Assembly: GCA_004369045.1 (NCBI GenBank)
Contig: ML213508.1
Span: forward strand, 1,381,572-1,445,571
From: Heliocybe sulcata
Lineage: Eukaryota > Basidiomycota > Agaricomycetes > Gloeophyllales > Gloeophyllaceae
Reading direction: 5' to 3'
DNA: 64,000 bases
A program made the position numbers and the translations under genes. How positions within the stretch are numbered: position 1 is the first letter of the stretch; every line of letters begins with the position of its first letter. Of the stretch, positions 11,184 to 59,841 are shown one piece after another. The notes under the pieces are model-generated. The model searched no databases. It saw nothing but the letters and a program-made list of their open reading frames with translations, and was not told the origin of the DNA.

Positions 11184-12975
11184 TCAGACCGTCTTCTTGT
11201 CCGCCTTCTCCTCGTTCTCGGAGCTGCTGTACCCAGAGTCGCTGCCTACGGCATTGCTCGCGAGGTTGCGCTGCGCCACGCCGTCTTGGTTCTTGTAAAA
11301 GACAATGTCGCCGTCGTCTTCGATGAAGCAGCATTCGCTGAAGGAGCGGTACAGCGCGTAGAAGGTGTTCTGTCGAGTAATGCCGGGTCAGGAAGGCTAT
11401 GTGTAAAGGAACCCGGCTGGACTTACGGTGGAGTCGTAGTTGTATTGGTCTTTGAGCACTGCCTTGATTCGTTCGGTCACCTCCGGCTGGTTGTCTGTGA
11501 TACAGTCTAAAAGTAAGCTCTTGGAATAGAAGAACAGCACTGACAGAAGGGTATGATTGAGAAGAAGTGATGCGCCACATGATCATGCGAGACCTGTCGG
11601 TGAGGCGAGCTATCAATGCGCGCCGATATGGACGGGGAGATGGTAGAACGCACGTTGTGCAGGAAGAACCGCCCAATCCACCCGAGCAGCGGTCTGTCGA
11701 CGGTGGCGACGGCTCCGCGCAGGAACGACCATTCTTTTCCGCGGTAGTGAGGGATGGTAGGGTCGGAGTGGTGCAAGAACGTCAGCATCACGATCCAGTG
11801 GTTGGCAAGCTGGGGTCACAGGCACGTCAGAACTGCGGTGACTCTGGGACACGAGAGATTGGCCATACCAGGTATGGTATAAAGTAGAACTTGACAAAGT
11901 CGGCGAGGCCGACCTGTTTGGCGTAGTAGTACAAGATGGCGGACATGCCGAGGAGGCCAATGTCGGAGATGATGATGTTCCAGCGCTCGTGTGCCTTGAA
12001 AAGCGGCGAGTACGGGGAGAAGTGCTATACAGACGTGTTCATGTTGCGGGGCTGCGCGACAAGCTGAGCGGTACTCACGTTCGTCCCCATACCTGGAGGG
12101 TACATCTTGCTCCCGAGGGCGTTGTAGCTCAGGTACGCGTGCCATCCGAGCAGCTGCATCATGACGATCCGGACGAGCGTGTAGATCGGCGTCTCCTCGA
12201 AGATGTCGTGGTAGTCCATGACATGGGCCACGCCTTCAGGGGGCAATTCGTAGTCTGTCCGAGTGCGAGGAACGTAGTTCTCGTCCCGCTCGATGGATCC
12301 AGTGGCTTTCTGTCGAACCCTCCGTTTGAGCGAAAGCGACCACAAGCGAGGCTGTGCACTTACATGGTGCGCATGATGGGTCGACCGCCATGAATAATAC
12401 GGGACCAGAATAGACTGGAATGGCTACATCAGTGCTCTCCACATCAGCGAGGGGAGCGCGATCGTACTGTATGTAACGCGAAACCCAAGATGTGGTTGAC
12501 GCAAGAATACGGCGACATTGTGCCGTGCCCGGCTTCATGGCCTGTCAGTTCCAGTTTAGCTCTCGAATACCTCCGTGGCGCAGAGGCAAGTAACCGACCT
12601 AAGCACCACCAGCCGGCCAGAGCAACGCCCTGCCAGAACCAGTACACCGACCACAGCGTCCATCTGAGGACCTCGAACGCTCTGTAGTGACCTGCATACT
12701 GGCTGTCCAGTGCTCGGCACAGCGGGTCGATATACGTGGCTGCGGCGTAGAAGAGCGCGGCAAAGAACACGTCTCGCGCTACGTATTGCAGAGACTTTCT
12801 AGTCGACTTCTGGTAGAGGTGCTTGGGGATAGCAGCATGGATTTCTGCTAGAGTCACCTGGACCGCGGTCAACTGGCTGAAGCACTGATTAGCAAAGGGA
12901 GACACTGACCTGGGGCGGGGAGAAGTCAGTGTTCTTGCGGTGCTCGTATTCGGGGCCGTTTTCAAAGATTCCCAT
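11184..12975 (-). CDS. FAD2-like membrane fatty acid desaturase (desaturase 1)
   Basis: Membrane di-iron desaturase of the delta-12/FAD2 family, acting on acyl chains in the endoplasmic reticulum. It starts MGIFENGPEYEHRKN, the same opening as desaturase 3 ([13 protein letters not shown]). Helical segments (VFFAALFYAAATY, SVYWFWQGVALAGW) precede histidine box 1, HEAGH. Box 2 is WRSTHHAHH, followed by ERDENYVPRTRTD. Box 3 is [14 protein letters not shown]. The C-terminal exons read CFIEDDGDIVFYKNQDG and end KADKKTV-stop. About nine exons. The usual HECGH of delta-12 enzymes is HEAGH here, and box 2 is unusual. It could be a desaturase, acetylenase or other FAD2-type modifier; regiospecificity cannot be read from sequence. 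It is divergent from an alpha/beta-hydrolase. Confidence 0.85.
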
Positions 12976-13412
12976 GGTGCGTTGAGTTGAGCGACGAGAG
13001 GGCAGCCCTGGGCGGGTGAAGGGGTGCGCATGCCGGGTATAAGTACGAAACGTTTCCTCTACGGAATATCCTGCGATTAACGTTTAACATGGAAATACAC
13101 CGGACGGATGGGGACGAGGACCCCGGGATCACGATCGATGGTATTACAGGAAATGCATGCGATTAAGAAAAGGTGGATGCCGTAAAGCAGCGGTCGATAT
13201 GATCCGGCTAGGACACGCGCGGCACGGAAGCAAATTCGTGATGAATCCGGCGATTGCCGCGTCACCTTGGTCCTGATTGATGCTATACACTCCGCTGCGC
13301 TCGACTATTACTTGATTTCATGAACGCGTTATCCATCATTAATTTGGCGGCGTCTGCCTTGCTTGCGACTCCATTTACATAGTCAAGATCGACCGCCCTT
13401 GACTTGCTCACA
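12976..13412. promoter_or_regulatory. divergent promoter region, desaturase 1 / acyl hydrolase
   Basis: The 437 bp between the two start codons must serve both genes. A GATCCGGCTAGG stretch near 13202 loosely resembles GGATCCGCC near 17408 in the other desaturase-hydrolase intergenic region. This is a weak similarity seen by eye and may be chance. Confidence 0.35.
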
Positions 13413-15234
13413 ATGTTCCACAGCACTGACCATCTCTGGTCACCGCTTCTCCGAGTCCTCCCTTCAGCATTAATATTGCTTTTGATTTACTTTGGAATAA
13501 CCTTCCTCCGAAGTATATCGGCCTCTCGAATCAGGCTTCTGCACTCCGCCAAACCAGCTTCTCTGATTCCAGATGGATCACTCACGCTTGTCGACCTTGT
13601 GAAGAATGCAGTCCCCGCTCTTGTCGGGCCGGAATCTGGGTTTCGCTCGGTGTGGTGGCTGCCAGGGTGAGACCACATGAGCTAACAGAGCCTCGCAGAC
13701 TCGTGCTCAACTTTGCAGAGGTAACGCCCAGACGATCTACTGCTCGCTGGGCGACTTCAGTCAAGTTGATCCAATAGTCTACGAACGGTGATTGCAACAG
13801 CACTGTCATCTGGAAAACCTAGCTAATACTGCGAAACAGGAAGCTTCTCTGTGTCCCTGACGGAGGTGCGATTATCTATTATCCCCAGTTTCAACCTCCT
13901 GGCCTATACCGTTTATTGAACATCGATGTAGGCACCCTGGCTCTCGATATCACTCCTCCATTCAGCGCCCAGCCCTTGGAGGTCGGAGAACCGGTTGTCC
14001 TCGTGACGCACGGGCTTACGGGAGGCTCGCATGAATCCTACGTCCGTGCGGCCTTGACCGCGTTGGCCAGTCCGGAGGCGCCCAGGTTCCGAGCAGTCGT
14101 CCTCAACTCCAGAGGGTGCAACGGCGCACCCGTGACTTCGCCCAAACTCTATCACGTACGTCCCCATAGGCCATCGTCTGTTGTGCAATGCAGGGTACAT
14201 CAGATTTGACGTTCTCATCCCCGACAGGCAGGAACGACTGATGATATCAGAAACGCGGTGCTCTGGATCTGCCACACGTTCCCCCGTTCGTCGATATTTG
14301 GCTTGGGTGCGTGCGACGTTACTCTGCTCCATTCGTCGCCGCTCATAGATATTGGTAGGATTTTCGCTTGGTGCTAACGCGTTGACAAAGTACGTCGGCG
14401 AGGAGGGGCCCGAGTGCCCTATCAGCGCGATTGTGAGTCTCGCTAATGTATGGGACTTTGCGCGCGGGTCGCCGCACATTGAGCGCGGGACGTGGATGAA
14501 CAGATTCGTCTATGATTTCGTGCTGGGCGGCGCACTGCAGGCGCTGCTAGGCAAGCATCGACGGATCTTCTATGAGGACCCTGCGTCCCCGCTGCCGTCG
14601 GCGCTTCTGGACGAGTTTTTGCCGCGCAAGAACGTAAGGTTGAGGGAGTATGATAGTGCCATCACTCCGAGGCTCTATGGGTTCGAGGACGCGATGGACT
14701 ACTACTCGGCTATCAGTTCTTGCAGAGTTGTGGAGCGCATTGCTATTCCATGCTTGGCTATCAACGCAGGGGATGATCCTATTGTCACGGTCGACAATAT
14801 TCCCGTATGTCAGGTACGTAGGCTATCTATCCCTATCATCCTTCTTTCCGTGATTGTCGTGCATCCATTGCAGATCCTACAATCCCCATGGGTTATTCAA
14901 GCTATCACCGGGGGCGGCGGTCATATGGGATGGTTCGAACCTTCGACTGGAGGGGGTCGAACGTTCGAGCGCTGGTACGTCAAGCCAACGGCACAATTCT
15001 TATTGGCGATTCGCGAGGTACGCTTGCATCTAAACGTGACGACAATCGGCTCTCACCGTATACTCCCGTGCACAGCTTGGCTTGGCTGCCCGACCGAGGC
15101 CTCGAATCACCGAAGACGCGGCGCGGGGTATGCGCTTGCAGGAAGGGCGCCCAGATATCGGTTTCCGAGAAGTGGAAGAAGAGGCTGTCGTGAGCAGCGG
15201 CACCGGGGAGTCGAAGCTGTTTTCGGGGTGGTAG
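13413..15234 (+). CDS. alpha/beta-hydrolase of the EHT1/EEB1/YMR210W (ABHD1/3) type
   Basis: In yeast this family includes acyl-CoA:ethanol O-acyltransferases/thioesterases for medium-chain acyl groups. The N-terminus has one membrane anchor (VLPSALILLLIYFGITFL). Family motifs are WWLPGGNAQTIYCSLGDFS, VPDGG-TLALDI, VLVTHGLTGGSHESYVR, VLNSRGCNGAP, the nucleophile elbow GFSLGAN, NVWDFARG, the acid in CLAINAGDDPIV and the catalytic His in GGGGHMGWFE. The last exon, after an intron near 15018-15078, ends EEEAVVSSGTGESKLFSGW-stop, a tail common in this family. The start is the first ATG of the frame; no earlier in-frame ATG exists close by. Its divergent arrangement with desaturase 1 suggests a linked acyl-chain role, which is inference. 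Confidence 0.85.
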
Positions 15235-16159
15235 GGCGAACGTGGGATGATGAACGATCTTCTAATCCGTACGCCGCGTCGTGGACTCGGAGGCTTCCCT
15301 TGTCCGGGACGTCGGAGGTCCTCACGTAGCGCAGGGATTTGGAATGAGGGATTTGAAAAAGGTGGGATGTTGATCATGATAAGATTAGAAGGAGAGGTTA
15401 CTGGGCATACTCTGTCTGTTTAAGCTAGGGATGCAGCACGGAGTCTGTTCGTCTGGAATGGTTTGTGAATTGATCCTGTGATCCAGCTTCCGCTGTGTAC
15501 GGAAGCTTAGCGCCTCCGTATTTGTGGGCTCTGCTAATCTTAAAGGCACCTAGCTAGGCTTCTTCGAAGTTTGTGGCGTTAGGTGGTTGACAGCCTATCA
15601 CTTCCCCGCCACTGCTGCGTTAACGTGATACATGCTCCGGAACAGTGGCTTATCTTGCGTCGCATAGGGTGCTGCCTCTCGTTAACGAAACAGGGATCAG
15701 AAGTAGCTTGGGAAGGATCACTGGTTCTGGTCGAGGACATATTTTCCGTCCTGCAGGACTCGGCTTACGGCAATCGTGGGCGTGCCATGCCTCTTCGCGA
15801 CGTCAGGTTCTTCGAGCGCATGTGGGCGAGGGAAATTATCTGCGTAAAGACTTTTCTTTGCGTGGTTTGAGAGAGCGTTCTGATGTGGCTAGGTTGGGAG
15901 GCTGCATCAATGAAATCGACTGGCGCAAGATCCGCGGGTGTCGATGTCGATTTCTGATCTAAGCGAGCAGATCTCGATTCTGGGCTGTGCACAAACGCTA
16001 AGCGAGATCCGCTCGATATAAGGATATCCATTAGTCAACGAGCGGTAATTACTCTGGAATTCAGTACGTCCTGCTATCACCGTGCCAATGTATTCCATTC
16101 ATGGACAGGGACATTGCCTAGGCAACATTTCGTCTCAAAGAAGAGTATCATTCGAGCGG
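15235..16159. other. intergenic, convergent gene ends
   Basis: About 0.9 kb between the 3' ends of the acyl hydrolase (+) and the HSL-type esterase (-). Short open frames occur but none with motifs or good splice borders. Confidence 0.4.
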
Positions 16160-17397
16160 TCATTGCGAGAACGCGAAACGCAAGGCGTCAATTATGTCTG
16201 CCCTCTTCTTGGCGCTGAGCGTAGTGTCATGGAGCAGCTTGTCTGATACGTGGAAAGTGGACCGATAATTCTGCACGGCCGGGTAATCGAAATTAGCACA
16301 GGCCCTGAAGGGAGCAGACGGACTTACGTGAATTTCAGTAGGCACCCCGGCTTCCAGGAGCTTGTGGCCAAAGGCAATGCCGTCATTTGTCAAGTCGTCC
16401 CACTGGGCGCAGAGGAGCATCGTCGGAGGTAGGTGATGCAGATTATCGGCAAGATTTGGCACGGCGTACCCCCTCACTTTGGGGTCAAGACTTTCCAGGC
16501 CCTGTGGAAGATAGAGCTCCCACATGTACCTGGTAACGTTAGCGTTCCAGATAATATTAACGGGGTTGTGATACGTGGAATAAGAGGATGGCCGGTATTC
16601 GAACGCGGCATCTTCCAGCAGCAGGAGGCGGATGGCGTTTCTGGCAGCTTCTACGCCGTGTTCGTCGCGGTATCGAAGGCAGACACCGACGGCGAGGGTG
16701 CCACCCGCTGATGTGCCTCCGACGGCGATGCGAGTAGGATCGATGAAGTAGTCTGCAACCCTGGATGAAGTCGTGAGCCACAACAACACCTGGTAGACGT
16801 CTTCGAAGGCTGTAATATCCCAATATGGTAAGCGCCTCGTGGCGCCGATTAAATGTTACGTACGCGCGGGAAAGGGGTCCTCGGGGGTCTGGCGATAGGA
16901 TGGTGCGGCGACGACGACACTGGCGCCTGCTGCGAGGGCACTGCAGAACGCATCGAGGCGCAGAGGCCCTGCGGAAAAGAAACCGCCATGATGCTTCCGA
17001 ATCATCTATCAGCGCTGTGTCAAGCACGCTGGGAATTACTCACCATCCACATTACCACCGGCAAGGGTCGCCCCTCTGCGCGAATAGGGATGTACAATCG
17101 GACAGCCGTGGGCGGCTGCGATAGGTTTGCTGTGCCAGCCGAGAGATACACATCCTTCTTGATGACCCCAGCGCTGTCGTGGGGTCTGGGAGGAATCGCG
17201 CGCATAAAGTCGACCACGACCTGCGCGCGCTGGGCCCTCTCCACTGTCTTTGGAAATATCGACACAAACTCGCGCAACTCCGGGTCGACGCGGCGGAGAT
17301 CCGTCGTGGTAGGGGTGGGTGTCATCGCAGGTGTGACCATGTCCGCGTCCAAGGGTGCGTGGCATTTTATACAGCTAAATCTGTTTGGGAAACTCAT
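16160..17397 (-). CDS. hormone-sensitive-lipase-type alpha/beta-hydrolase (fold-3 esterase)
   Basis: Serine esterase or lipase of the HSL/arylacetamide deacetylase group. After splicing, the oxyanion-hole region reads MWMHHGGFFSAG. The nucleophile lies in AVGGTSAGGTLAV, the acid in LLCAQWDDLTNDG and the catalytic His in the final exon, STFHVSDKLLHD. That His exon is joined by a 54-nt intron (GTAAGTCC...TGCTAAT...GTGCAG) after GVPTEIH. N-terminal DLRRVDPELREFVSIFPKT is the usual cap start. The start is uncertain: MSFPNRF at 17397 was chosen, but ATGs near 17340 and 17326 would also keep the domain. Substrate is unknown. The gene is divergent from desaturase 2. Confidence 0.82.
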
Positions 17398-17822
17398 GCA
17401 CCGGATAGGATCCGCCTGAATCCGTGACCCAGCGCCCTGCGAGTGCAGGCATCTCGATTTCATATCGTTATGCCGAACAAGATCAGTTGACGTAAAGTTC
17501 CTGGATCACCTTCCAAAGATTCCCTTCATACTGTGTGGAGATCGCGAGGCGTGGTCCACGAACACGCTCTAGTCTGTTCGCTAATCGGGGTAATCGTTAA
17601 GTTTGTGCTCTCACCGTAAATGGGATGACCTGCAGAAGCATCATGCCGCCTGATCGAACAGCCCTTCCTTCCGGGACAATCTCGTCTGCAGGTTCGAGGA
17701 CATATCTCTGGTCCATATTTTTGCAAATTATAAGTACCTCCTACTCTCGAGGGGATTAATAGCACGGCCTGCACCTGGTGTCTCCTCAGGTCTCGCCTCG
17801 ATTTCCACCTCCTTTCGACGCA
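17398..17822. promoter_or_regulatory. divergent promoter region, esterase / desaturase 2
   Basis: 425 bp between the start codons of the two genes, nearly the same spacing as in the desaturase 1 pair. A TTATAAG at 17728-17734, about 90 bp before the desaturase 2 ATG, could be its TATA element. A GGATCCGCC word lies near 17408. Confidence 0.4.
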
Positions 17823-19533
17823 ATGGGCGCTCCTATTAACCTTTCCACTCAGCCTGCTCCTCAGGCGAAAGGCCACAGCGTGCGGGAATCGCCCGACTAC
17901 ACGCCCATGCCATGGTGAGCAGGCCGTCACGGGCTTCCATTCGGCACTGGCTGACTGCACGTCATGCAGGACTCTCAAGGAGATCAGGTCTGCTATCCCT
18001 GCCCAGCTCTTCGTCAGGGATACGCCCAGGGCGATTCTCTACCTCGTACGGGACCTGCTCATGGCCGCTGTCGTGTGGAAGCTGGGTCTCCAAATAGACC
18101 CGGCGTTCAGGCACTCGCGTGTCACCTCTGCGTTGACCGCGACAGGCGCGGAAGTGGCGAGATGGGCGGCTTGGTGTGCCTAGTACGTAGCGCTGGGGAA
18201 ACTGATGCCACTGGTGCTAACGGGGGGACCTTCCAGCTGGTGGGTTCAAGGGTTGATCTTTACCGGCATATGGGTCATTGGCCATGAAGTAGGTTTACGG
18301 TTTAGCGCGTCGCAGGTGATCGGGAGATTAACCTCTCGTCTCTAGTGCGGCCACGGTGCCTTTTCTGCCCATAAGTGGGTGAACGACATTATTGGCTTTG
18401 TAAGCAACCATTCATCGTGTCTGGATGCGCTGAGCTATATTCGTCTTTCAGACCACGCATATCTTCCTGTGGACGCCGTACTTTAGCTGGAGGATCTCGC
18501 ACCACCGCCACCACAGCAACCATGCCTCTATGGAACGCGACGAGGTCTATGTCCCCAAGACTCGGACTGACCTGGGGATACCGAAGGAGTCTGAGGGCCA
18601 CCACATGGACTATGACGACTACTTCGGCGATACTCCTATTTACACTATGTATATGTTGATCCGGCAACAACTTCTGGCATTCCCTGCATATCTCCGTGAG
18701 TGCCTAACTCTATTCTGCGCGTCTTGCCTGACGCCAGGCACATACAGTCTTCAACGTGTCTGGCCAGAAGGACTACCCAAAATGGACGAATCACTATGAT
18801 CGTAAGCATGCGCGCTATTTTTGACCGCGCCCGTGGCTGAATGGCCATGCAGCCAACTCTGTCCTGTTCACGAAGGAGCAGCGCAATGTCGTCATCATCT
18901 CGAACCTCGGGACAGCGGCGATGGCATATCTCGTCAAGGCGGCCTGTGCGCAGTACGGCGCGTCCAGCGTGGTGAAGCTCTACGGAATCCCTTGGTTGTG
19001 TGTCACGCACTGGTTCATTATGATCACGTACCTCCACCACACGGATCCAGAGCTGCCGCACTACCGCAAGGCAGAGTGGAACTTCCAACGTGGCGCCGCC
19101 GCCACTGTGGATCGCGACTTTTTGGGCTGGTGGGGTCGTTACTTCCTGCACGATGTCGCGCACTTTCATGTCATCCACCACTTCTTCCCCAAGATGCCGT
19201 GGTGTACGTCTCTCATATTTGGCTGCGCCTTTTCATGCCTGCTCACTATTGTTGCGTGTAGACAACGGGGAGGAGGCGACCAAGTACCTGAAGGAGTTTA
19301 TTGGCGAGCACTATGCCTACTCGAACAAGCCCGTCTTCAGTGCGCTCTGGCACAACTACAATGAATGCCAATTCGTCGAAGATGAAGGTACGCATTGATC
19401 GCGCAGTCATAACGCACTTGTGTTCTAAGAGATGATCGGTATAGGCGATGTCTTGTTCTACAAGAATCGTAAAGGGGAAGCTGTGAGACGGCCGGCGCAG
19501 AGACTCGCGCCTCCTCCGCAGGAGAGCACGTAA
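17823..19533 (+). CDS. FAD2-like fatty acid desaturase (desaturase 2)
   Basis: Second membrane di-iron desaturase and the closest of the three to canonical delta-12 enzymes. It starts [14 protein letters not shown]; the second exon begins [19 protein letters not shown]. Box 1 is HECGH ([16 protein letters not shown], split by an intron). Box 2 is [20 protein letters not shown], followed by VYVPKTRTD. Box 3 is [20 protein letters not shown]. The C-terminus reads [18 protein letters not shown] and ends PPPQEST-stop. About eight or nine exons. Box 3 HVIHH differs from HVAHH in desaturases 1 and 3, so it is not their recent duplicate. It probably makes linoleate-type products or a further modified chain; specificity is not deducible. 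Confidence 0.87.
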
Positions 19534-20784
19534 ATAGGCGGCAGATCCGGTCCGGAACGGTACACGTTGCTCTAAAAGTGGCGACGCAATATCTATCCTT
19601 TATGTTATCTTCTTGGGCCTCCATCCGCTGCATTAGAGTCTCGCGTATCTCGTAATTATGTACATCAAGCTGGCGTGTTGCACCATCAATGAGATTCATT
19701 CCTTTGAATTTGTCAAGTGTTTCAGTATGCAACTACCTCTCGTCGTATGGAAGGTATGAATTACGTTGTTTATGCGAAGGCGAGTCAGTGAATTAATTAC
19801 ACTTCATCTCCCATACCATTAATCGAGGGTGACGACATTAATTTCGCCAACGTTCAATCTATGTCCACTGACATTAGTTATCAGCATGCTGTACAGTGCG
19901 CCCTGCCTTCTACACCAGTTCTCTGGATACTCAGACAAACTACAAGTCCTTAATACACTTAATGCAGCAAATGATGCACGAGGACCTGGCTCCAAGACCG
20001 GAACTTAAGAAGCGCCGCATTAATAAGTCGAGCTCATCGCTGGTATCCAGTCTGCTTCCGTAGGCTTGCATTATCTAGAGGCTACGAAGAGGGCTCTGGT
20101 CACGATCGTTCGGTTTTTGCAGAGGCTGCCTACCAACAGAGCGCATCTCGACAGCGGTGTGGCCACCCTACCCTTTTATGAAGAGCTCATGGCCTTACGA
20201 CCTCTGTACTTCCCTTGCAGAGGCTCCCGGCCAACTCAAGTGGTCTCCACAGGGAAAGATCACCAGGCGCGCATCCAGGTTACAAACTGGACGACCTCTT
20301 GGCCTCTCTTCGCCCTCCAAGCAGACACACTTGTAGGTGACCAACGCCAGAGCACTCGCCAACACCTGCGAGTACGCTGGGACTCCTCGCCGTCCGTCCT
20401 CGAACCTAGTCCGACTCGGACGTCGTTCCAATCAAAACACGGAAGCAAATCTGCTATCGATGCAACACAGGATCGGTACGCATCTGATCTCCAAATCGTT
20501 GTGGACAGCTTCTGTCTCACTCGCATCGCGAGTCGGGATCTTCTGTCTCAGTCGGCCAGCGCGGCGCTTCCTGATGCGATCTTGTGGCGTTCAGTAGAAC
20601 GTGGCGAGCAGCGTTTAAACGCTTAACTACCGACGGACGACTTCTCAGTCCCGAGGGGAAGCGCTGGGTATTATTACATTACAGCGAAGTAATTATCGAA
20701 TGGCAAGCCAAGGGCATCCGGGATCTATAGGTATGAACAGAATCCAATCCAACCGTAAAGTACTAATGGTTCACAACCCAATCT
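19534..20784. other. intergenic region, convergent gene ends
   Basis: About 1.25 kb with a 186-codon open frame at 20066-20626 (+) that lacks recognisable motifs, introns or homology-like patterns. Otherwise nothing was seen. It could hold a decayed gene. Confidence 0.35.
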
Positions 20785-22938
20785 CTAGTCGCGGCTCGGG
20801 CGCTCCATATGCACGAGCTCGACCGCACTGCTCGTGATCCTCTCCAAAGGCCACCTCTCACCCTCGCCATGCTTCAAGTCCAACACTTCGCCCACATAGT
20901 CGCACGCCTCCAGCACAGTATCGATATCCTCCTTGGTGTGCGCAGCACTGACGCAGAACCGCACACGCGAGGTAATCAAAGGCGTAGCAGGGTACGCCAC
21001 GACCACAATGACAATCGGCGTGCTGTACTGCCGCAACAGCCGGTGGAAGGGCGCCATCTTGCCAGGATGGAAGATGAGCAGCGGGACGATGGGCGAGTCG
21101 TCGTGCCCGTAGACGATGAACCCGAGCTTCTCGAGCCCTCGGTGGAGATACCGCGAGTTGAAGGTGATACGGCGCAATCGGTCAACGCCCTCCGTACCAT
21201 CGCGCACAGAGGGCGGGAGGTCCATCCAGGACGGCAGGGAGGAGGCGAGGGCGCGACCGGGGTACGCCTCTTTGACTTCAGGCTCAATCATGCGGCTCTT
21301 GGTGATAGTACCAGCGGATGTAGATGTAGGCAATGCGGGCGTGACACCCATGATACTGGCCATACTGGCGATGACTTGGGCGAGGACGGGCGGAGTCATG
21401 GCCTCTGCATAGGCGTGCGAGTGGCTGCGCACACGGAGACGGTCGATGACGGTCTTCGAGCCGGAGATGTAGCCACCAGCGGCCCCGAACGACTTGGTGA
21501 AGGTACCCATGAGGATGTCGATTGAGCGGGGGTCGACACCGTAGTAGTCAGCCACACCCCGGCCGTGCGGACCGAGGGCGCCGATCGAGTGAGCCTCGTC
21601 GATGAAGAGGTAGAACTGGAGGAACGTGAACCCATGCAGACGCACAGTCAGACGAAGCAATTTACCTTGTATTTCTTCTTGAACTCCATGATAGCCGGCA
21701 GATTGGTCATGGTGCCCTCCATGCTGAAGAGACCCTCTACGATGAGGAGGATCTTCTTCCATGGCCTGTGGGTCTTGGGCTGTCCCTGACTGATGACCTC
21801 CTTCAAGAGATTCTCGAGATCCTTCATGTCGTTGTGCTTGAACATCCTGACATTCGCTCCACTCAGCCGCACACCGAACCGGATCGACGCGTGATTCAGC
21901 TCGTCCGAGATCACGAGGCAGCCTTTGCTGACCAAGGCCGGGATGATGGTTGAGTTGGTCGCGAAGCCCATCGAGCAGATGAGGGAGTCCTCCTGCCCGA
22001 CGAAATTGGCGACCAGCGCCTCGGCCTGAGAGTGTAGGTCCAGAGACCCGCCCTCGCGACGCGTGCCGCATGCAGAGACACCGTACCGCTTGATGCTCTC
22101 CTCCACGGCGTCCGCACATCCGCCCCGTGCTTGAGCGAAACCGAGGTAGTTGTACGAGGAGATGTTGAGCGCACGGACCTTGCGCCCCGTAGGCTGGAAC
22201 GTGATGTTGTAGTCCTTGGAGTCGCGCTCGAGAAGCACGATGGTGCGACCCGCCACGCCCGTGACGGGATATGAGAAGCAGTCATCGATACGAGTTTTCA
22301 GCCTCCGGGTGTAGAATGAATCGAAGTCGGAAGTGATAGGAGCGTAACCCTAAGACGGGGTGATGTTCAGCTAGGGGTAAGAACAGGCCAAAGAGCGAGC
22401 TCACGTCATGAGGTACCAAGTGCTTGAACTCTCCTGGGTTGAAGTACTTGCGGAAGAAGTCACGAAAGTGCCCGAATACGATGAGGATTATGTAGCTGAT
22501 ATACGTCGTAAACAACACATAGTAAGGCGGATCTTGCTCGACCTGGGGCTTCACAGGCTTCCCGGGCGGATGCTGGGAAGTGTACTTATACTCGTCGTTG
22601 GAGCAATGGCCGAACTCGGAGTGTACAGTCGTATAGACCTGCTCGGACGTCGGGGGTACCGAGGGGTATGTCAACATGTCCGAGTACGACTCCTCTCCTT
22701 CGTCCAAGATGGTATCTTCGCTGCTCGCCGTGACCGACGACGACAAGGACAGTGCGGGCGTCGCCAGGGGCGTCTCTCCCCGCGCGCGGGCGCGGGCGTC
22801 GGCCGCCCTGACGGCGGACAGGTAGGACGCGGCGGTCGACATGGGGCCGAGGGACGAAGACGACTTCTTCTTCCTAAACATCGACGGCGTGGGTGACGGG
22901 GGGTTGATCGCCATCGGCGACGGCGTCTGCGCGGGCAT
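20785..22938 (-). CDS. LCB2: serine palmitoyltransferase subunit 2
   Basis: Catalytic subunit of serine palmitoyltransferase, which condenses serine with palmitoyl-CoA in the first step of sphingolipid synthesis on the ER. It has a ~130-residue low-complexity N-terminus, then a membrane segment (YVLFTTYISYIILIVFGHF) and HFRDFFRKYFNPGEFKHL. The aminotransferase class II fold follows: NISSYNYLGFAQ, YGVSACGTRREGGSLDLH, LINHAS-like SDELNHASIRFG, KILLIVEGLFSMEG, FIDEAHSIGALGPHGRGVAD and the PLP lysine motif GTFTKSFGAAGGYI. The C-terminal part includes TPPVLAQVIAS, RFCVSAAHTKEDID and ends HMERPSRD-stop. Three introns. The start at 22938 (MPAQTPSPM) is the first ATG; others within 20 residues are possible. 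Confidence 0.93.
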
Positions 22939-24836
22939 TAGGTTAGGGCGGTCGCTGTCGTCCTCGTCGTCCTCGGAAAGGAGCGCAAAGTCGCCAAAAT
23001 GCCTGGGCGCCCGGTCTCGTTCGCGACGGGGGATCTGTTACTATATTTGGGAAGCCGATAGTTCCGAAGTGACTTCACTGACTACACGCGCACTACGTAA
23101 CACAGCCATAATGTAAGGACTTTGGAGTAAACAGAAATATCATGCAGGGCGAGATGAAAATAACAACTGGTTGGTACCGCCATCCTTGTGAGCATCGAGC
23201 AACACGAGTACGAATATGCCCGAAACAGATAGAGAGCAACACTGATATTGGGTACCTTGCTGGGCGGATGGTGCGCTCAGAGGACGAAGGCACAAGCAAG
23301 AGGTGGTAAAAGCAACAGAACCTGGGCAATATGCATTCTTCAGCGTCTCCAGTCCAAGCCTTGCACTTCTCAGCATAAACCCGCCTCTCCTGATTGAGAG
23401 GTGCACGGATAGGTGCGTGATGGTCAACAAAACCCGAAGTCAGCAAGGCTACTGAAGGAACTGATGTCGAGCTTGTCCAAGGCGCATTGAGATCGAAGTA
23501 TAGTGATAGAAGGGGACAGTAGCACGCCATTACTCGTTTTGATTGTCGAATTGTAAGATTGAGGAGGGCTGGCAGGAGGTAGTTAAAGAAGGAGTCCATC
23601 CTGGATTTGCTGGCGGATGTCTCCTCGATGAAAGCGAGTATGCGAGGAACGGATTTCATTCTGAAGGGACGAAGCGGACCGAGATGCAGTACAGCAGGGC
23701 CTCTCTTCTTTAGCAAGTTATTGGGCAATTGCTGGGGATCAAAGATTTTCAGAGCTTTGAATTCCTTCAGGATAGCAGAGGAAGCTGAAATGCTTATATT
23801 TCTTGGGAATCAGTGAGCGTTGTGACCGGACAATATTCAACTGAACGTCGCACTTGCGCACCTAGTTCCCCAGTGAAGTTGCTTGGCCAGCCAGACGCAA
23901 GACTGGATCCCGTCATGCTAACGAGAAATCCCTTGCGAGTTGGTGCAGCCGTTTACTCTATAGTAAGTGTACTGTGAAGACGACAGTGATGAAGAGAAGG
24001 ATGTTGGCTGAAGAGTGTGTATTACTCGAACCTGGAGTCATGCCGCGCGAGCTCGGAAGATCCCGGGATCAACGAGCACCAAACCGCAGGTTTCTCATCT
24101 CTTGCAACAACATTTTGTTTGATACACGCCCTCTGGGGTTCCATACCCCCGTAGGAACAGCCTGCCCGCATTGCGCCACAGCATATGCAGCCCATCAGAA
24201 CCCATCAACCTCTGACTTGGTTCTATCTGGCGCCGTCGATAGGTCATATTCCGTGGCTGTCTCTGCTAATACGCGACGACCAATTCTCGCACTATCGATG
24301 TAAGTCGGCGGAAGTGAAATGGAATGCGATGATGGGATGCTAAACTAATGGTCCACCGTCCTTACCAAAGCGCCGACACAAGGGTCGACGATTGGCGGTA
24401 AGAGGATCTCGATATACCTTTGCTGGGAAAGATTTCAGATACAGATGGAAGATGATCGTGAGCTAACTTCCTATCTCAAATTCATATCTCTCCCTGAGAA
24501 CCTGATTCCGGTGGACTGGTAGGTCCATTGAGCCTTGAGGCGTTCTCGTCATATGTAAACAAGTAGGCGCCTCTCGCAGTGGGGAATGGTCCCCAGGGAC
24601 TCCCGCAAAAATGTCTATGGTGGCGTGATGAACGCAGAGATCCTGATCCGGTACCAAGTGCAGTCAAGGATATGGCCATGGATATTCCTTCCGGTGGTGG
24701 CTGAATCCGTAATATTCCCTGGGTCACCTAGGTCAGAAGCCTTCATAGTGGCCTCTGTCCCTCGTTTCTCGAGTGCCGTCGTCCTTCTCGCACTCGATAC
24801 GCTGCCTTGCCCCGCTCAATCCAAGGGTGCTCTGCC
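22939..24836. other. gene-poor interval between LCB2 and desaturase 3
   Basis: About 1.9 kb upstream of two divergent genes, so it should contain both promoters. A 211-codon frame on the minus strand (23093-23728) shows no family motif. No repeats or transposon features were seen. Confidence 0.4.
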
Positions 24837-26841
24837 ATGCAGTGGTATCAAATATTCCAAAACGGCCCAGAGTACGAGGCTAGGAAGCAGAACTCGACCT
24901 TCACTCCCTCGAATCTCTCTCTGAAGGACGTACATGCCGCCGTCCCCAAGCATCTGTTCCAGAGGGACACCGCGAAAAGTCTCTACTACATCCTGCGACA
25001 TGTGGCCTTGACCTACGCGTTCTACGTCCTCGGCACTCGGATAGATGCCTTTGCATGGACACTCGGCACGACATACGCCCTGCGCTACCCTGTCAGGGTT
25101 CTGCTGCGGTCAGCACTCTGGGTTACCTACTGGTTCTGGCAGAGCATCGCGTTCGCGGGGCTGTGGTGCTTAGGTGAGTATAGCTCCAGTCTCCTTCCAC
25201 CGTAGTCCCCAGAGCTTGACAGTCCACTCAGGACATGAAGTAGGCTTGCCAACTCTGATGGTGGTGGGCGCGCGCAGCTCATCTCTTCCGTGTTAGACGG
25301 GACACGATGCCCTATCGCCTCGCCCCTGGTTCAACGCCGTCGCGGGCATCATTCTGCATACGTTCATATTGGTCCCGTACTACTCCTGGAGGGTCACCCA
25401 CCGCACGCATCACGTATGCCCTGACTTTTCGACTGCGATCATTGCAGCGGCTGACAAGCGCCATCTGTCCTAGAAATCCACAAATAACACCGAACGTGAT
25501 GAGACGTACATTCCCCCGACGCGCAAGGATCTCAAGCTTCCTGATGGCAAGGTGGCGGTCAAGATGGACTACAAGGACATTATCGAAGAAACACCGGCGT
25601 ATACTCTGTTCAAGTTAGTCATGCGGCAGCTTTTGTAAGTGCCTATTTTACTCTGGAAGAGCGGTGGTCAATACCTTTGCCGATGTCAGGGGTTATCAGC
25701 TGTATCTTTTGTGAGTTCAGTATGTTGACCCGCCCTTCACGGAGGAATGACTAGTGTACTATAGACACAATCGAAAAGGCAACCCGAAGTATCCGCCTTG
25801 GACCAGCGTAAGTTGGTAGAGGACCTCGGCCCGACTTCGTTATGTCTGATGCTCTTGCTATCTTTAGCATTACAAGCCGTCCTCACAGATCTTCAAGCCT
25901 GAGCAGCGTAAGTGGTCAATCCACCTCAAGTCAGTCCTCGCCGCTCAAGTCGACTGACGACTTTCAGGGCAATCCATCGTCGTCTCTAATGTCTGCATCG
26001 CGACAATGCTCTCCATCCTCGCGATTTGGACGCACCAGACTAGTGGGCTATATATGTGGAAGCACTACTGGGTGCCGTGGTTGGTAAGCTCGTCGACGCT
26101 GATCATTTGTGTAGAGTCTCTGACGTACTGGAATGGAAGTTTGCAAATAGCTGGTACGTGCGAAACTCGTCTGTATTCAATGTATTGTGGACTGACTTGT
26201 GTTCAGGATCGTCACCTTCACGTACCTCCAGCACTCGGATCCTACCATTCCTTACTACCGCAGGGTAGGTCGTGGAATCCCAGCCGTGCTCGGTGTACTG
26301 AGATGATTTCTCTCTTAGGATCAGTGGACCTTTGCTCGAGGTGCTCTAGCTACGGTAGACCGACCTTTCTTCGGCTGGGTCGGACGGTTCTTCTTGCATA
26401 ATGTTGGTTCATTGATTTCCCTTGCGTCTTCGGAGAAATACGAGAGCTTATTCATCATTGCAGATTGCGCATGACCATGTCGCCCACCACTTTTTCTCGA
26501 TGATCCCATTCTGTAAGTGCCCTTATACCATGAACAAAACGGTTATCTTACATGTGTTCAGACAACCAGCCCGCTGTTACAGAGGCAATTAAACCCGTGC
26601 TAGGCGACCATTACAATTACGATTCTACGGTGAGTCCCACCACAACCCTAAGGAGGATCCATTCACTTAGACTTCCCGACCCTTTCGGACGGTGATGCAG
26701 GGCACGTTGTTTGCGCTGTGGCGATCCTTCCGGCAGTGCACGTTTATCGAGGATGACGGTGACGTTGTGTTCTTCAAGAACCAACAGGGAGAGGCTGTCC
26801 GCGAAGTCGCAGGATCTGCAGGGGTGGCGGGTGCTCAGTAA
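24837..26841 (+). CDS. FAD2-like fatty acid desaturase (desaturase 3)
   Basis: Third membrane desaturase. Start [16 protein letters not shown]; the next part, [21 protein letters not shown], parallels desaturase 1 (LAEIHAAIPKHLYQKSTRKSL). Box 1 is split: [14 protein letters not shown]. Box 2 is [10 protein letters not shown], followed by [15 protein letters not shown]. Box 3 is [14 protein letters not shown]. The C-terminus reads [18 protein letters not shown] and ends VAGAQ-stop. It has about twelve small exons, several shorter than 60 nt, so it is more fragmented than the other two. The shared HVAHHFFS box, ILVPYYSW segment and N-terminus group it with desaturase 1. The HETGHD box 1 is unusual. 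It could be an acetylenase or a desaturase of another position. Confidence 0.84.
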
Positions 26842-27521
26842 TTCAAGCATGGCCGGGCCGAGCGACGGTGGCGTCTGCTTCTCAGCCTGGTTGTGAAGGG
26901 ACCATCCATGGTCACCCTTTGCGGTGAATATATATAATTTGCGGCGTATTCTGTCAGTGACCTGGCAACTATCGAATGATCTCCGTTTCTGAGTGTAGTA
27001 GGACGCCGACTCTGCAAGCACTCTTTGTAGTGGTTACCCTCCTCGATCCGCTAATGAGACTAGTGGATCCTGCGTCGGGCGCGTTGCCATCGGGCTGCTG
27101 TGGCAAGTCGCGCGTCGCGACGCTGCATGCACCTTGTACTCTTGCTCCTCCGCGCGCGCCAAGTATACCTTCTGCGTCGACAGAGACCCTGCTACTGTCG
27201 ATGTAACTCCACGATCGACAGCAGTTGCTGCGGCTGCCAGGGCTAGATCCGACTAGTGGTCGTTCTGAATACACTGAATCTCTGCCTCTTGTCGCCGTAT
27301 TCTTGATTCGCGGCCTCTTCTCCTCGATACTGGCCCGAGGATCCAACCCTTTGACATTAGCTGGTAAAGACCGGGATGGCCGGTGTCCATCAAGACGATC
27401 TCAAGTCGAATGACTAGGCGTGCTATAACGGGGCCATCTGCGAGATTCCTGTCTTGTCCAGCAGTTTAAGAGGGACCAGGTATGGAGGATAATTGGCAAC
27501 GACGACTCCTCCACTGCTACA
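26842..27521. other. intergenic region before thioesterase
   Basis: Nothing beyond short frames was seen. It should contain the desaturase 3 terminator and the thioesterase promoter. Confidence 0.35.
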
Positions 27522-28431
27522 ATGTCCAGACTGTCCCAGCCATTTACACCGACCGAAGAGGCGGTGCTCAACGAGTACGATCTGACGCCAGCGCCGACGC
27601 CGTGCTCATCCTCTACCAGCAAGCACCGCGGTTCTCGCTTAAATTGCAGTCGCGGTCAAGTTTGGGTGGATCCTCAATCTCTACCGAACTATGGCGACGC
27701 ATCCCAGATAGGAGGCAATGCCCCAGAATGCGTGAAGCAACTCAACAATAACACGTTTGGCGCCTACGGCTTGGGAGATGAAGGGTGTTTTGGCTATGCA
27801 GTAGGAAAAGATCTGAGGTTTGTGGAAGTCAGTATAGACCGCCGTCAGGACAAAGGCGGGAGAATGGAGGCAACTACTGTGGCCGAGGTCGATGTGACGA
27901 AAAGTAAGGCATCTGCCCTCTCTCAGGAGATATTTCGCACTGAATATTACAATTTAGAGATGTTGAACGGTGCCGGTATGCTGCACGGGGGCTGTTTGGC
28001 GTATCTCGTAGACATGTGAGTTCGTGTCTTCCGAATTCTTTCCCCATCTAACATTCGCCGTGCGGTTCCCAGGTGCTGCGCTACACCCTCCATCGTCTTG
28101 GGTCTAGTGCAAAGAATCAACGGAGTTGGCGTAACACAGGCTATGAACATTCTTTATCATTCTCCGGCACCATCGTAGGTTTGTTCAATACGAAACCGGT
28201 ATCAAAAGGTTTATCTCTGCGTCACAGAGGCACAACGCTGCGAATCGTTAGCACCTCCGTTACCTTGGGTGGGCGCTGCATGACTTCTCGCTGTGAGGCA
28301 AGTTCTCCATGTAGCTTTCCGCGACACCTCGCAGAATTTTGATGGCGCAGTAGGTGATTGATCACCACAGTGGCCGATCAATAGCTTCGGCGTTTCTCAA
28401 CAAAATGCAGCCTAACACGGCTAAGCTATGA
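27522..28431 (+). CDS. hotdog-fold acyl-CoA thioesterase-like protein
   Basis: Member of the ACOT13/PaaI-like hotdog family, which hydrolyses acyl-CoA thioesters. Exons 27522-28015, 28073-28174, 28228-28297 and 28354-28431 sum to 744 nt (247 residues). The core motif GMLHGGCLAYLVDM (HGG on the hot-dog helix) is followed across the first intron by CCATPSIVLGL, then AMNILYHSPAPSGTTLRIVSTS and TLGGRCMTSRCEV, and ends AFLNKMQPNTAKL-stop. The N-terminal ~110 residues are an extension unlike the compact family members. The third intron begins GC instead of GT. It sits between desaturase 3 and a GMC oxidoreductase, all on the plus strand, so a role in releasing a modified acyl chain is possible but unproven. 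Confidence 0.78.
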
Positions 28432-28863
28432 CTTCTCCGTGGACGTCTCAGTTCGGTGAAAAAGCCGCCGATGCTAGAACGATGGTGTACGATACATCAA
28501 GCCCGAGTCTGGCCTCTGAACGTTAACCTTGAAGTCCACAATGTAAAAGAAACCTCGGAGAGGGGTTTATGTAATATGGTTGTATTTTCCAATGTTCAGC
28601 GTTACGAGGTATCCGGAGTCCGTGTCTGGCGGATTCGGTCGACAAGTCCGGTCAGTCTTCGTCTTCCTCTTGAAGATACGCGCTATCCGCGGAAGTCTCC
28701 CTGGCATCACCGTCATGAGATGATGCCAAAGGCACCCTTTCATCGGGCAGGCCGACTTTACTGATCATTGAATCGCCCTATCGAAGGCTTATGAATTTCA
28801 ACCACAATTAGTCAACTAGCGACGTCCTTCTCTCACTTGCTGGCGCACCCCGAGCTCGCCCTC
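28432..28863. other. short intergenic region
   Basis: 432 bp between the thioesterase stop and the GMC oxidoreductase start. No clear element was seen. Confidence 0.3.
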
Positions 28864-31232
28864 ATGCCCACCCATCCGCGCGTCTACTCTGCCCACCATG
28901 CCGCCTTTGCGAAGACGAAGTTTGGCGACGGCGGCTCGTCCACACCTGAGTTCGACTTCATTGTGGTGGGAGGCGGCCCCGCGGGATGCGCCCTAGCAGT
29001 ACGCCTTGCCGAAAGCCCCGCCGGGTACTCTGTCCTTCTGCTTGAGCAGGGCACAACGTAAGAGACGTCGCGTGGTCGCGCTGGACTTGTAGTCTTAATT
29101 TATCCAAGTGTCGAGCAAAATCCAGAACTCCAGAATTCCACCAGGTTGCCGCTGCTTACCCGTTCTTTGCATGGCAGTTCCTTTGACGTCCAGTATCCAA
29201 CCGTCGGGGAGAATCAGTTTGCTCACAAGGAGCTGAAGATTAACAATGGTGCGATTTGTTAGGCGTGTTCGACTTGTATATCACTGACGGCATCTTGCGT
29301 CTGCAGGCAAGGTACTGGGTGGATCCACCTGCATCAACTGGGGTATATGGACCAGAGGGCCGAAACGTACGATCTCTCGGACATCGCTCTCGAGTTACTG
29401 AGAGTAACTCTCATCCAGACGACTACGATCTATGGGCGCAACTGACCGGCAATCAGGAGCTATCGTGGGATGCGATGCTTCCGACGTTCAAGCGTGTAAG
29501 AGCCATACCCTCGTGACGAGTACGTTTACTGATCGCCGTCTAGATCGAACGCCAGACAAGCGTGACCGTTGACAGCCCGCAAGGGCCCATATCCATCCGC
29601 TCGAGCTCGGAATCGCCCAGGGATAATTACTGGTCCGGTACGGCTGCTCTATCTCTTGAACAGGCAGGCTTCAAGAGACTACTGAATATTAATGATGGTG
29701 ATATGCTCGGGTACGGGGAACTTGTGGAGAACGTGGGTGAGAAGGGGCAGAGAGCCACCGCAAACGAGTATCTGAAGAAGACGAGCGCGGCAGGGCTGGA
29801 GGTGTGGACTGCCGTGCGGGCGGAGAAGATTGTGTTCGAAGGTGAGGGGGGAGACGGGAAGACGCGCGCTGTTGCTGTGTCTACGCATGTTGGCTTGGTG
29901 AGAGCAAGGAAGGAGATTGTAGGTGCAGCTTTCCCTCCTCATTGTTGCCGGTTTCAGTCATTTGTGGCTCGATTTATTAGATCTTGAGCGCCGGTGCTGT
30001 CCAGAGCCCGCATATCCTTCTGCTGTACGTTCTTGCCTTGCTGTGCAAATCGGTAACTGACACAGTGAATGATTTATTTAGCTCAGGCTTGGGCCCTCGC
30101 TCGCAATTGGACACTCACGGGATTCCTGTGATACATGACCTACCTGACGTGGGCCAGAACTTATGGGAGCATCCTTTCGTGGATATAAGGTTCGTATGTC
30201 ATCGAAACATATAGCATGACACTCGTCAGTAACGGGGCTGTGGAATGTAGGTTCAAGCTGCGTAGTGACAAGCGACGAGACACGGCAGAGGACCTGGCTA
30301 GCCTCAGGACTGCCGGACGGCATTTGGACAAGTGGGCGAATGAAGGAAAGGGCATGATTAGTGGTATGCTGGGTTGTCGCATCGTTGCTGCTCATGGTAC
30401 TAAACTGAGAGCAGGGATCCCCGTGGAATGGTTCACGTTTACGAATCTGAAGGAGAGAATAGAGCCGATCTTAAATAAAGGTGCGCCTATTAGGAGTACT
30501 ACTCGGGAAGTTGTAACGCGTCGTTGTTAGACTCCTCCATGACGGAATACGAGAAGAGCACTCTCCTGCGGCCTACTGTACCGCATGTCGAGCAATTCTT
30601 GCACTACGGTCACGGTCTTACCGCAGCGCCCGACCCCTTCCAGTCTTCCTACATTTCCATCTCCAATGTCCTCCTGACTCCCCGGTCGCGAGGCTCCGTC
30701 TCTCTTGCACCAGGATCATTCAATGCAGCTCAGGAATCCCCGTGCGATCCGATAGACCCGCGCATGCCCCGTATCGAGGTGAATCAGCTGAAAGAGGAGG
30801 TGGACCGCGAGATGATGGTCGCCTCGATCGAGAAGGCGTATGATGTGCTGAGTTCGAAGGCTTGGGAGGAGTTCTTGGAGCCCCAGGAGAAGCCTAGTAG
30901 AGAGGCGATTTTGGAGATCATTAAGGAGAGGCTTACGACGCGTGAGTGCCTCCCGACGAATCCTTGATTCGATGATTGAAGTAGGTATCCGCGTCTCAGT
31001 TTGGCATCTCGGAGGAACATGCGCGATGGAAACGACCTTTAACAAGGGAGTAGTCGACTCTACCTTCCGGGTACATGGTGTGGAGGGGCTGCGGGTGGCC
31101 GGTATGGTGTCTTTCACGTCCTAGACTGACATACCGTTGATCAGTTCCATGTCCTCAGACACCAGCGTTATTCCCTTCCCGATATCCGCGCACACTCAGG
31201 CAGTGGCTTATGCTATTGGCGAGAAGGTATGA
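28864..31232 (+). CDS. GMC-family FAD oxidoreductase
   Basis: Flavin-dependent alcohol oxidase or dehydrogenase (glucose-methanol-choline family). The start MPTHPRVYS leads into the FAD-binding Rossmann motif FIVVGGGPAGCALAVRLAE. Exon 2 reads TVEQNPELQNSTRLPLLTR. Then come GKVLGGSTCINWGIWTRGP, HDYDLWAQLTGNQELSWDAMLPTFK, the second FAD motif LSAGAVQSPHILLL-SGLGPRSQLDTHGIP and DLPDVGQNLWEHPFVDIRF. The catalytic region has VSVWHLGGTCAM (active-site His) and ISAHTQAVAYAIGEKV-stop, where most relatives have Asn-Thr in place of His-Thr. At least nine exons; the junction between ~30230 and 30540 is the least certain. No signal peptide is seen, so it is probably intracellular. The substrate is unknown; a fatty alcohol, aryl alcohol or sugar alcohol are possibilities. 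Confidence 0.82.
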
Positions 31233-31751
31233 GGTGAATCAGGCACGTAGTTTCGTCGGTGTATTGATTGCTTCCTCGATAGGCTGCCGTCTTTATTGGG
31301 AGAGATCATCCGTGAGCTGTTAATGCTATGAGGGTACGAGCATACGGGGTTGCATGCATACTTGCCACTTGCCTTCTGGGCAGACTCCCATGCTGCCCCA
31401 TCCGAAATGACATAGATATTGAATGTACGAATAATGCACTGCCGACATTGCAGAGTCATTAATGAACAGAAACGTGGTATGCTATGCGCGCCGTAGTAAC
31501 GGTCTCGTCGAGGAGACTTCCCTAGCGAGTCTAGGCTGTTCCTGCAAGCGGTTCTGCTTTCACCTCTTCTTCCTCCTCCTGTACACAAGCTGTAGAACGC
31601 AATGCATCTGGCGCGCATCGCTCAGTACAGCAATCCTCTGTCCAATGTCCGTCGGACGCCCGAGCATTTCGCCTACAAAACCCTGAGAACTGTCTCGCCT
31701 GTCTCTTTCCGCATGACTCGTGCTGGTCTATAAACTGCAGCTGTCTGGGGC
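31233..31751. other. intergenic region before alanine transaminase
   Basis: About 0.5 kb, presumably the promoter of the aminotransferase gene. No open frame of note was seen. Confidence 0.35.
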
Positions 31752-49340: not shown

Positions 49341-49396
49341 CTTGCGTGAGGGGTCGTGGAGAGTGGTATATGGGTATACCTAGAACTGTGGGTATC

Positions 49397-50535: not shown

Positions 50536-50681
50536 TACAACGATGTATAATACATGCAATCCGTAGAATGCAAAGAGAGATACTAGAGCCCATTCGGTCA
50601 GACGAGACATAACGGGCCTTATGAGGGGCGCACCGGATACAATACATTTGATTAGTCCTTCAAGTTCCCTCTCTCTCCTCG

Positions 50682-58497: not shown

Positions 58498-58649
58498 CGA
58501 GGAGAGAGAGGGAACTTGAAGGACTAATCAAATGTATTGTATCCGGTGCGCCCCTCATAAGGCCCGTTATGTCTCGTCTGACCGAATGGGCTCTAGTATC
58601 TCTCTTTGCATTCTACGGATTGCATGTATTATACATCGTTGTATAATGA

Positions 58650-59785: not shown

Positions 59786-59841
59786 CCCACAGTACAAGAT
59801 CGCTATACCCATATACCACTCTCCACGACCCCTCACGCAAG

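What the first reader, a model, noticed from the sequence alone, without database searches (positions are those of the whole stretch)
11184..31232. Lipid-enzyme cluster with three distinct FAD2-type desaturases
Within 20 kb there are three non-identical membrane desaturases, two alpha/beta-hydrolases (one of the EHT1/EEB1 acyl-transferase/esterase type), a hotdog thioesterase and a GMC oxidoreductase. Established knowledge: basidiomycetes make polyacetylenes and other modified fatty acids using divergent FAD2-family desaturases and acetylenases. Inference: this could be a biosynthetic gene cluster for such a product. LCB2 and alanine transaminase sit inside and beside it and may be bystanders.
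Basis: partly seen in the sequence, partly recalled or inferred. Interest (0 to 1): 0.75.

Follow-up and report, generated by a model that had tools for sequence, protein, structure and literature searches.

The report
Conserved mushroom fatty-acid desaturase cluster
A brown-rot mushroom carries three unusual fatty-acid desaturase genes side by side with lipid-handling enzymes, and two of the three are found together in many other mushrooms, so this may be part of the still unidentified gene set for mushroom triple-bond fats (polyacetylenes), although the product is unproven.

Summary
The window is the end of a contig of Heliocybe sulcata (Gloeophyllales). Between 11.2 and 31.3 kb lie three intact, mutually distant FAD2-type desaturases (D1, D2, D3), two intact alpha/beta-hydrolases, a hotdog gene with an unclear end, and an intact GMC oxidoreductase; LCB2 and an alanine-transaminase-like gene look like bystanders. 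A canonical-type delta-12 desaturase (D7) is on another contig, so D1-D3 are not the housekeeping enzyme. The main new result: the D1 and D2 families share a contig in 24 of 38 other Agaricomycete species against about 2 expected, with adjacent locus tags in four; in Marasmius oreades and Coprinopsis marcescibilis the pair occurs twice. D3 is linked less often. The hydrolase between D1 and D2, without another close copy found, has a 55%-identical relative fused, in a gene model, to a D1-type desaturase in Pleurotus djamor. D2 meets two plant-derived sequence rules for acetylenases. A conserved unit making acetylenic or otherwise modified fatty acids is the best reading; the chemistry is untested. 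Lentinus lepideus, a close relative, is reported to make a C10 triyne. Hotdog, GMC and LCB2 membership is unproven; no P450 or shared promoter motif was found.

The parts
11184..12975 (-). D1: divergent FAD2-type desaturase, 431 aa, 10 exons; boxes G-HEAGH, HHAHH, HVAHH
   Evidence: Hand model, gene finder gives the same, identical to OE88DRAFT_1718176 of Heliocybe sulcata; boxes
12976..13412 (.). 437-bp gap between divergent D1 and EHT1-like hydrolase (possible shared promoter)
   Evidence: Coordinates; no word shared with the other upstream regions beyond background
13413..15234 (+). EHT1/EEB1-type alpha/beta-hydrolase, 491 aa, 7 exons; GFSLGA nucleophile motif seen by eye (motif recalled)
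   Evidence: Model; Pfam PF00561 E 2.2e-15; further relatives at 36-55% identity per stretch on C3, C26, C28
16160..17340 (-). HSL-type (Abhydrolase_3) hydrolase, 339 aa, 4 exons, HHGG and GTSAGG motifs by eye; best-supported non-desaturase member
   Evidence: Model; Pfam PF07859 on draft; draft is 174 of 319 (55%) identical to the hydrolase part of Pleurotus djamor model P0013; next genome hit 44% over 64 residues
17341..17822 (.). 482-bp gap between divergent HSL-type hydrolase and D2
   Evidence: Coordinates
17823..19533 (+). D2: FAD2-type desaturase, candidate delta-12 acetylenase, 424 aa; boxes [21 protein letters not shown]
   Evidence: Model, identical to OE88DRAFT_1626954; motifs. Of the 120 listed hits, 12 carry the name linoleoyl phosphatidylcholine delta-12 acetylenase (a 13th in a cut-off name) and 8 delta 12 fatty acid epoxygenase, as annotation only
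20785..22938 (-). LCB2-like serine palmitoyltransferase subunit, probable bystander
24837..26841 (+). D3: third divergent FAD2-type desaturase, 418 aa, 14 exons; boxes G-HETGH, HRTHH, HVAHH
   Evidence: Corrected model; Pfam PF00487 on draft; best listed relative 85% in Neolentinus lepideus
27522..28297 (+). Hotdog (4HBT) thioesterase-like gene, 3' end not modelled, possibly damaged; membership unproven
28864..31315 (+). GMC oxidoreductase, 601 aa, 12 exons, nearest solved structures alcohol and aryl-alcohol oxidases; membership unproven
   Evidence: Pfam on draft; PDB best 8rpf alcohol oxidase E 2.4e-52
31812..33359 (+). Alanine-transaminase-like PLP enzyme (two adjoining gene-finder models), probable bystander
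   Evidence: only the longer model scanned: PF00155

Best explanation
D1, D2 and the HSL-type hydrolase between them are the core of an old Agaricomycete gene unit for acetylenic fatty acids; D3 is a lineage-dependent addition. Proposed order of work (all catalytic steps inferred): D7, elsewhere in the genome, makes linoleate; D2 converts the C12 double bond to a triple bond (crepenynate); D1 and D3 add further unsaturation towards the methyl end; the hydrolase, perhaps with the EHT1-like hydrolase and hotdog enzyme, releases the acyl chain; beta-oxidation shortens it; the GMC enzyme may oxidise an alcohol end. Shown: gene set, intact desaturase, hydrolase and GMC frames, divergence from D7, conserved D1-D2 linkage. 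Likely: a conserved modified-fatty-acid unit (about 0.75). Less sure: that the modification is acetylenic (about 0.45).
For: D1-D2 families on one contig in 24 of 38 other species, expected about 2.0 at 40 Mb, P 2.6e-28 if species were independent, which they are not; 17 of the 24 on contigs under 500 kb. Consecutive locus tags: Tricholomella constricta 010536/7, Termitomyces Mi166 013685/6, Marasmius oreades 006258/9 and again 009359/60, M. crinis-equi 000358/9; one gene between them in Hohenbuehelia (012264/6). Two pairs on two contigs in Coprinopsis marcescibilis. D1 and D2 are in separate clades (D2 family support 0.997, D1 plus D3 families 0.972), so not a recent tandem copy. Hydrolase-D1 merged gene model in Pleurotus djamor, same strand order as here. 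Gly before box 1: D2 family 119 of 120; (D/N)VX(H/N) before box 3: D2 family 113 of 120, D1 family 108 of 119; D7 has neither. A triyne is reported from Lentinus lepideus (PMC10636002, passages); Neolentinus lepideus (same species by recalled synonymy) has D2 and D3 relatives on one 270-kb contig.
Against: No activity or expression data. The motif rules come from plants; the D3 family fits the box-3 rule in 0 of 92 and the D1 family has Ala before box 1 in 77 of 119. The D1 and D2 families are very widespread, wider than reported polyacetylene producers as far as I know (recalled). 14 of 38 species do not show D1-D2 linkage. D3 shares a contig with D1 in 7 of 34 and with D2 in 10 of 39, three of these cases hundreds of tags apart. 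No D1 orthologue from Gloeophyllum or Neolentinus among the best 120. No P450 in the window among 109 matches, though only 92 of 262 candidates were scored; no shared promoter word.
Confidence: 0.45

Rival explanations
1. The conserved unit modifies fatty acids, but not to triple bonds: D2 is an epoxygenase, hydroxylase or conjugase and the unit makes oxylipin-like or conjugated products.
For: Gly before box 1 is reported for functionally divergent plant FAD2s in general, except delta-12 hydroxylases (PMC3554562, passage), so it does not single out acetylenases; 8 of 120 D2 hits are named delta 12 fatty acid epoxygenase and some D1 hits fatty acid conjugase, names only.
Against: DVAH before box 3 in 112 of 120 D2-family proteins fits the motif proposed for plant acetylenases, a rule untested in fungi.
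Confidence: 0.22
2. The unit serves ordinary membrane fat: D1, D2 and D3 are delta-12 or delta-15 variants used in development or stress, kept together by co-regulation.
For: Many D1 relatives are annotated delta-12 desaturase; Lentinula edodes has six FAD2 genes whose transcripts change with heat (PMC11277945, outline and results section); the families are very widespread.
Against: A separate canonical-type gene D7 exists with A-HECGHQAFS at box 1; D1-D3 boxes depart from it; a hydrolase travels with D1 in one other species.
Confidence: 0.23
3. Chance or leftover proximity: desaturase copies and unrelated lipid genes happen to lie together, with no joint pathway.
For: D3 linkage is patchy; hotdog, GMC, EHT1-like hydrolase and LCB2 linkage was not tested in other species; no shared promoter word.
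Against: D1-D2 linkage in 24 of 38 species against about 2 expected, and duplicated pairs.
Confidence: 0.1

Closest known systems
Cantharellus formosus FAD2-type acetylenase (Blacklock et al. 2010, seen only as a reference in PMC10636002; paper itself not held)
   Same: Basidiomycete enzyme; by recall of the FAD2 family and converting linoleate to crepenynate, as proposed for D2
   Different: No sequence was available for comparison, so clade membership of D2 is untested; no gene cluster is known to me for it
Plant FAD2-type acetylenase sets, such as carrot DcFAD2-6 (acetylenase) with DcFAD2-11, -13, -14 (PMC12191966, passages)
   Same: Several divergent FAD2 paralogues are assigned to one polyacetylene pathway; D2 fits the two plant sequence rules
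   Different: Fungal, with a hydrolase partner, and a gene pair conserved across many genera of one class
Six FAD2 genes of Lentinula edodes (PMC11277945, outline and results section)
   Same: Multi-copy FAD2 family in an Agaricomycete, two large clusters in their tree
   Different: Treated there as linoleate makers under heat stress; the section I read says nothing of the genes lying together on the genome
Bacterial polyyne gene clusters (e.g. PMC8406139; search listing only)
   Same: Gene clusters for polyynes
   Different: Bacterial; no relation tested here

Membership tests
FAD2-type membrane fatty acid desaturase | Three histidine boxes and FA_desaturase domain | tested here: met
   D1, D2, D3 have the boxes; Pfam PF00487 for D2 and draft D3, precomputed for D1
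Canonical delta-12 oleate desaturase | Ala immediately before box 1 (plant rule, PMC3554562) | tested here: not met
   D1, D2, D3 have Gly; D7 has Ala
FAD2-type acetylenase | Gly before box 1 | tested here: met
   D1, D2, D3; not specific to acetylenases
FAD2-type acetylenase | (D/N)VX(H/N) at -5 to -2 of box 3 | tested here: inconclusive
   D2 DVAH and D1 NVSH fit, D3 NIAH does not; rule derived from plants
FAD2-type acetylenase | Makes a triple bond from linoleate | not testable with these tools
   Needs expression and fatty-acid analysis
FAD2-type acetylenase | Groups with the Cantharellus formosus enzyme | not tested
   No such sequence among the listed hits; paper not held
Biosynthetic gene cluster | Gene linkage conserved beyond close relatives | tested here: met
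   D1-D2 24 of 38 species; hydrolase-D1 in one species; D3 weaker; EHT1-like hydrolase, hotdog and GMC not tested
Biosynthetic gene cluster | Shared regulatory signal or co-expression | tested here: inconclusive
   No shared upstream word beyond background in 5 regions; expression not available
Biosynthetic gene cluster | Tailoring P450 or regulator inside | tested here: inconclusive
   None of 109 P450 matches lies in the window, but only 92 of 262 candidates were scored; a copper-fist protein at 44.2 kb is outside the unit; regulators were not searched for as such

The most novel reading that the evidence does not exclude
The D1-D2 (hydrolase) unit is the general, class-wide genetic basis of mushroom polyacetylenes, in place since early Agaricomycetes, with D3 and other genes added in some lineages; it predicts that Fistulina hepatica uses the D1 and D2 relatives on its 355-kb contig for its polyynes.
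Probability: 0.3. Interest if true: 0.82.

Novelty: new variant of a known kind. Interest (0 to 1): 0.58.

Why it matters
Mushroom polyynes have been known for decades (recalled), and a 2020 paper on the Fistulina hepatica polyyne feldin still places the identification of the biosynthesis genes in the future (PMC7692509, passage). A conserved gene pair with a partner hydrolase gives a short list of candidates, in genome-sequenced producers, that can be tested by expression and gene removal. If the product turns out not to be acetylenic, the result is still a widely conserved lipid gene unit without assigned function.

Tried and rejected
A first run of my gene finder with a light intron penalty produced nonsense and was discarded. 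Draft models of D3, the HSL-type hydrolase and GMC were wrong at a few exons and were corrected by eye against relatives; several attempts gave internal stops before the final ones. The D3 homologue search, its Pfam scan and the tree used the 405-aa draft. A shared promoter motif was sought and not found. D2 has no meaningful solved relative. A telomere repeat was not found in the window. I considered 'housekeeping desaturases' and rejected it for D1-D3 because D7 exists. I did not use structure prediction. Paper searches for a described basidiomycete acetylenase or polyyne gene cluster showed none in the listed rows (one search listed 20 of 115, 15 of 3,214, 15 of 140); most subscription journals are missing from that library, so prior description cannot be excluded.

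Limits of the linkage count: only the best 120 hits of each of three searches were seen; 292 of 331 proteins were typed into a table with organism and contig, 39 were dropped (nameless rows, and P0014 and P0319 without contig); two odd models (P0007, P0088) were left out of the tree; contig identity rests on equal contig length; one mistyped contig length (P0106) was corrected before counting; the D1 family as counted has no branch support as a clade and includes D4 and D5 relatives; species are not independent; genome size was assumed (40 and 30 Mb).
Full report
What it is. The window is bases 1381572-1445571, the right end, of contig C6 of a 31.6-Mb assembly. D1 is identical to a public protein of Heliocybe sulcata, order Gloeophyllales. 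I built gene models with a small gene finder trained on the window, and corrected them by hand where relatives showed the exons.

Anatomy. From left to right: D1 (-), EHT1-like hydrolase (+), HSL-type hydrolase (-), D2 (+), LCB2-like (-), D3 (+), hotdog (+), GMC (+), alanine-transaminase-like (+). D1 and the EHT1-like hydrolase, and the HSL-type hydrolase and D2, are divergent pairs with 437 and 482 bp between them. D1, D2, D3, both hydrolases and GMC are open through all exons. The hotdog gene matches 4HBT weakly and lacks a clear end. Pfam hits among other window gene models are a ferredoxin, an HMGL-like gene, an SH3 protein, a 3'-5' exonuclease, zuotin, a copper-fist protein, a protein kinase, a WD40 protein and Hikeshi; none suggests the same pathway. 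Not every predicted model was scanned (two further kinase-like models and a short one were not).

Not the housekeeping enzyme. Searches of the genome with D1 and D2 gave seven FAD2-type places: the three here, and one each on C21 (D4), C5 (D5), C26 (D6) and C7 (D7). D7 has A-HECGHQAFS at box 1 and neither divergent feature; I take it as the canonical delta-12 enzyme, by inference. D6, identical to P0230, is 70% identical to D2 over 98% of its length, and D5 (P0031) is 64% identical to D1 over 97%. Three more FA_desaturase-domain places seen with the Pfam model (C1, C2, C14) were not examined.

Families. Of 331 relatives returned by three searches (best 120 each, some shared), 329 plus D3, D4 and D7 were put in a tree rooted on D7. 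The D2 family (120 tips, support 0.997) and the D3 family (92 tips, 0.997) are clear; D1 with D4 and D5 relatives (119 tips) is a group without support of its own; D1 and D3 families together have 0.972.

Conserved linkage. Using contig length as contig identity, D1- and D2-family genes share a contig in 24 of 38 species other than Heliocybe that are in both lists; about 2.0 are expected for a 40-Mb genome and 2.6 for 30 Mb. 17 of the 24 are on contigs under 500 kb. Locus tags are consecutive in Tricholomella constricta, Termitomyces sp. Mi166, Marasmius oreades (twice) and M. crinis-equi, and two apart in Hohenbuehelia grisea. The pair is doubled in M. oreades and Coprinopsis marcescibilis. 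14 of the 38 show no shared contig. D3 is weaker: D1-D3 7 of 34, D2-D3 10 of 39. D3 is three tags from D1 in M. oreades, M. crinis-equi and Collybiopsis confluens, and on the same contig as D1 and D2 in Jaapia argillacea (646 kb) and Pluteus cervinus (186 kb), but hundreds of tags from D1 in Hohenbuehelia and Trametes sanguinea and from D2 in Pleurotus ostreatus. As a comparison, copies within one family share a contig in 1 of 10 (D1) and 2 of 10 (D2) species with two or more copies. Gloeophyllum's listed D1-family protein, P0040, is sister to D5 (support 1.0), and Neolentinus is not among the best 120 D1 hits, so D1 may be missing in Heliocybe's near relatives.

The hydrolase. A Pleurotus djamor gene model, P0013, runs an Abhydrolase_3 protein straight into a D1-type desaturase. 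Its hydrolase part is 174 of 319 (55%) identical to the hydrolase here (draft model). In Heliocybe no other close copy was found. I read P0013 as two neighbouring genes merged by annotation, on the same strand and in the same order as here with the EHT1-like gene left out. This is one species only.

Motifs. Plant work (PMC3554562, one passage read) reports Ala before box 1 in oleate desaturases and Gly in divergent FAD2s, and a (D/N)VX(H/N) motif before box 3 in acetylenases. Here: Gly in 119 of 120 D2-family, 84 of 92 D3-family and 35 of 119 D1-family proteins; the second motif in 113 of 120, 0 of 92 and 108 of 119. D2 and D1 themselves meet both, D3 one, D7 neither. These are leads, not proof of activity. 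Names such as 'linoleoyl phosphatidylcholine delta-12 acetylenase' (12 of 120, plus one cut-off name) or 'delta 12 fatty acid epoxygenase' (8 of 120) on D2 relatives are taken as transferred annotation.

Chemistry in the literature. A review (PMC10636002, passages) lists (2E)-decene-4,6,8-triyn-1-ol from Lentinus lepideus, now Neolentinus lepideus (synonymy recalled), whose genome has D2 (86%) and D3 (85%) relatives on one 270-kb contig. Fistulina hepatica, whose polyyne feldin is described in PMC7692509 (passages), has D1 and D2 relatives on one 355-kb contig; that paper speaks of identifying potential polyyne genes as a step to come. A search naming Heliocybe, Neolentinus or Lentinus lepideus with polyacetylene or polyyne showed, in the 15 of 140 rows listed, no title about such compounds from Heliocybe.

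Judgement. I put about 0.75 on a conserved modified-fatty-acid unit and 0.45 on acetylenic products.

Noticed in passing
window 46835-51098 and 58080-62347: Large inverted repeat with arms of about 4.3 kb in four pieces, 94-99% complementary, about 7 kb apart near the contig end; each arm holds a protein kinase gene with the same predicted protein. A real palindromic duplication or an assembly effect.
   Followed up: partly
G000 C21:270372-271632, about 6.3 kb from D4: Terpene synthase family 2 gene near the fourth FAD2-type gene.
   Followed up: partly
G000 C26, left of 231532, near D6: AMP-binding/male-sterility-type reductase (NRPS-like carboxylic acid reductase) next but one to the D2-like gene D6; its exact coordinates and start were cut from the output.
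   Followed up: partly
window 24837-26841: No identical Heliocybe protein was listed for D3 although D1 and D2 have one, so the public annotation may lack or mis-splice it; 14 short exons may be why.
   Followed up: no
window 27522-28297: Hotdog gene has no clear 3' end and may be a decaying copy.
   Followed up: partly
P0109 (Bondarzewia mesenterica): A desaturase model that resembles D4 by eye is fused to a different alpha/beta-hydrolase (PF12697), suggesting another desaturase-hydrolase neighbourhood.
   Followed up: no
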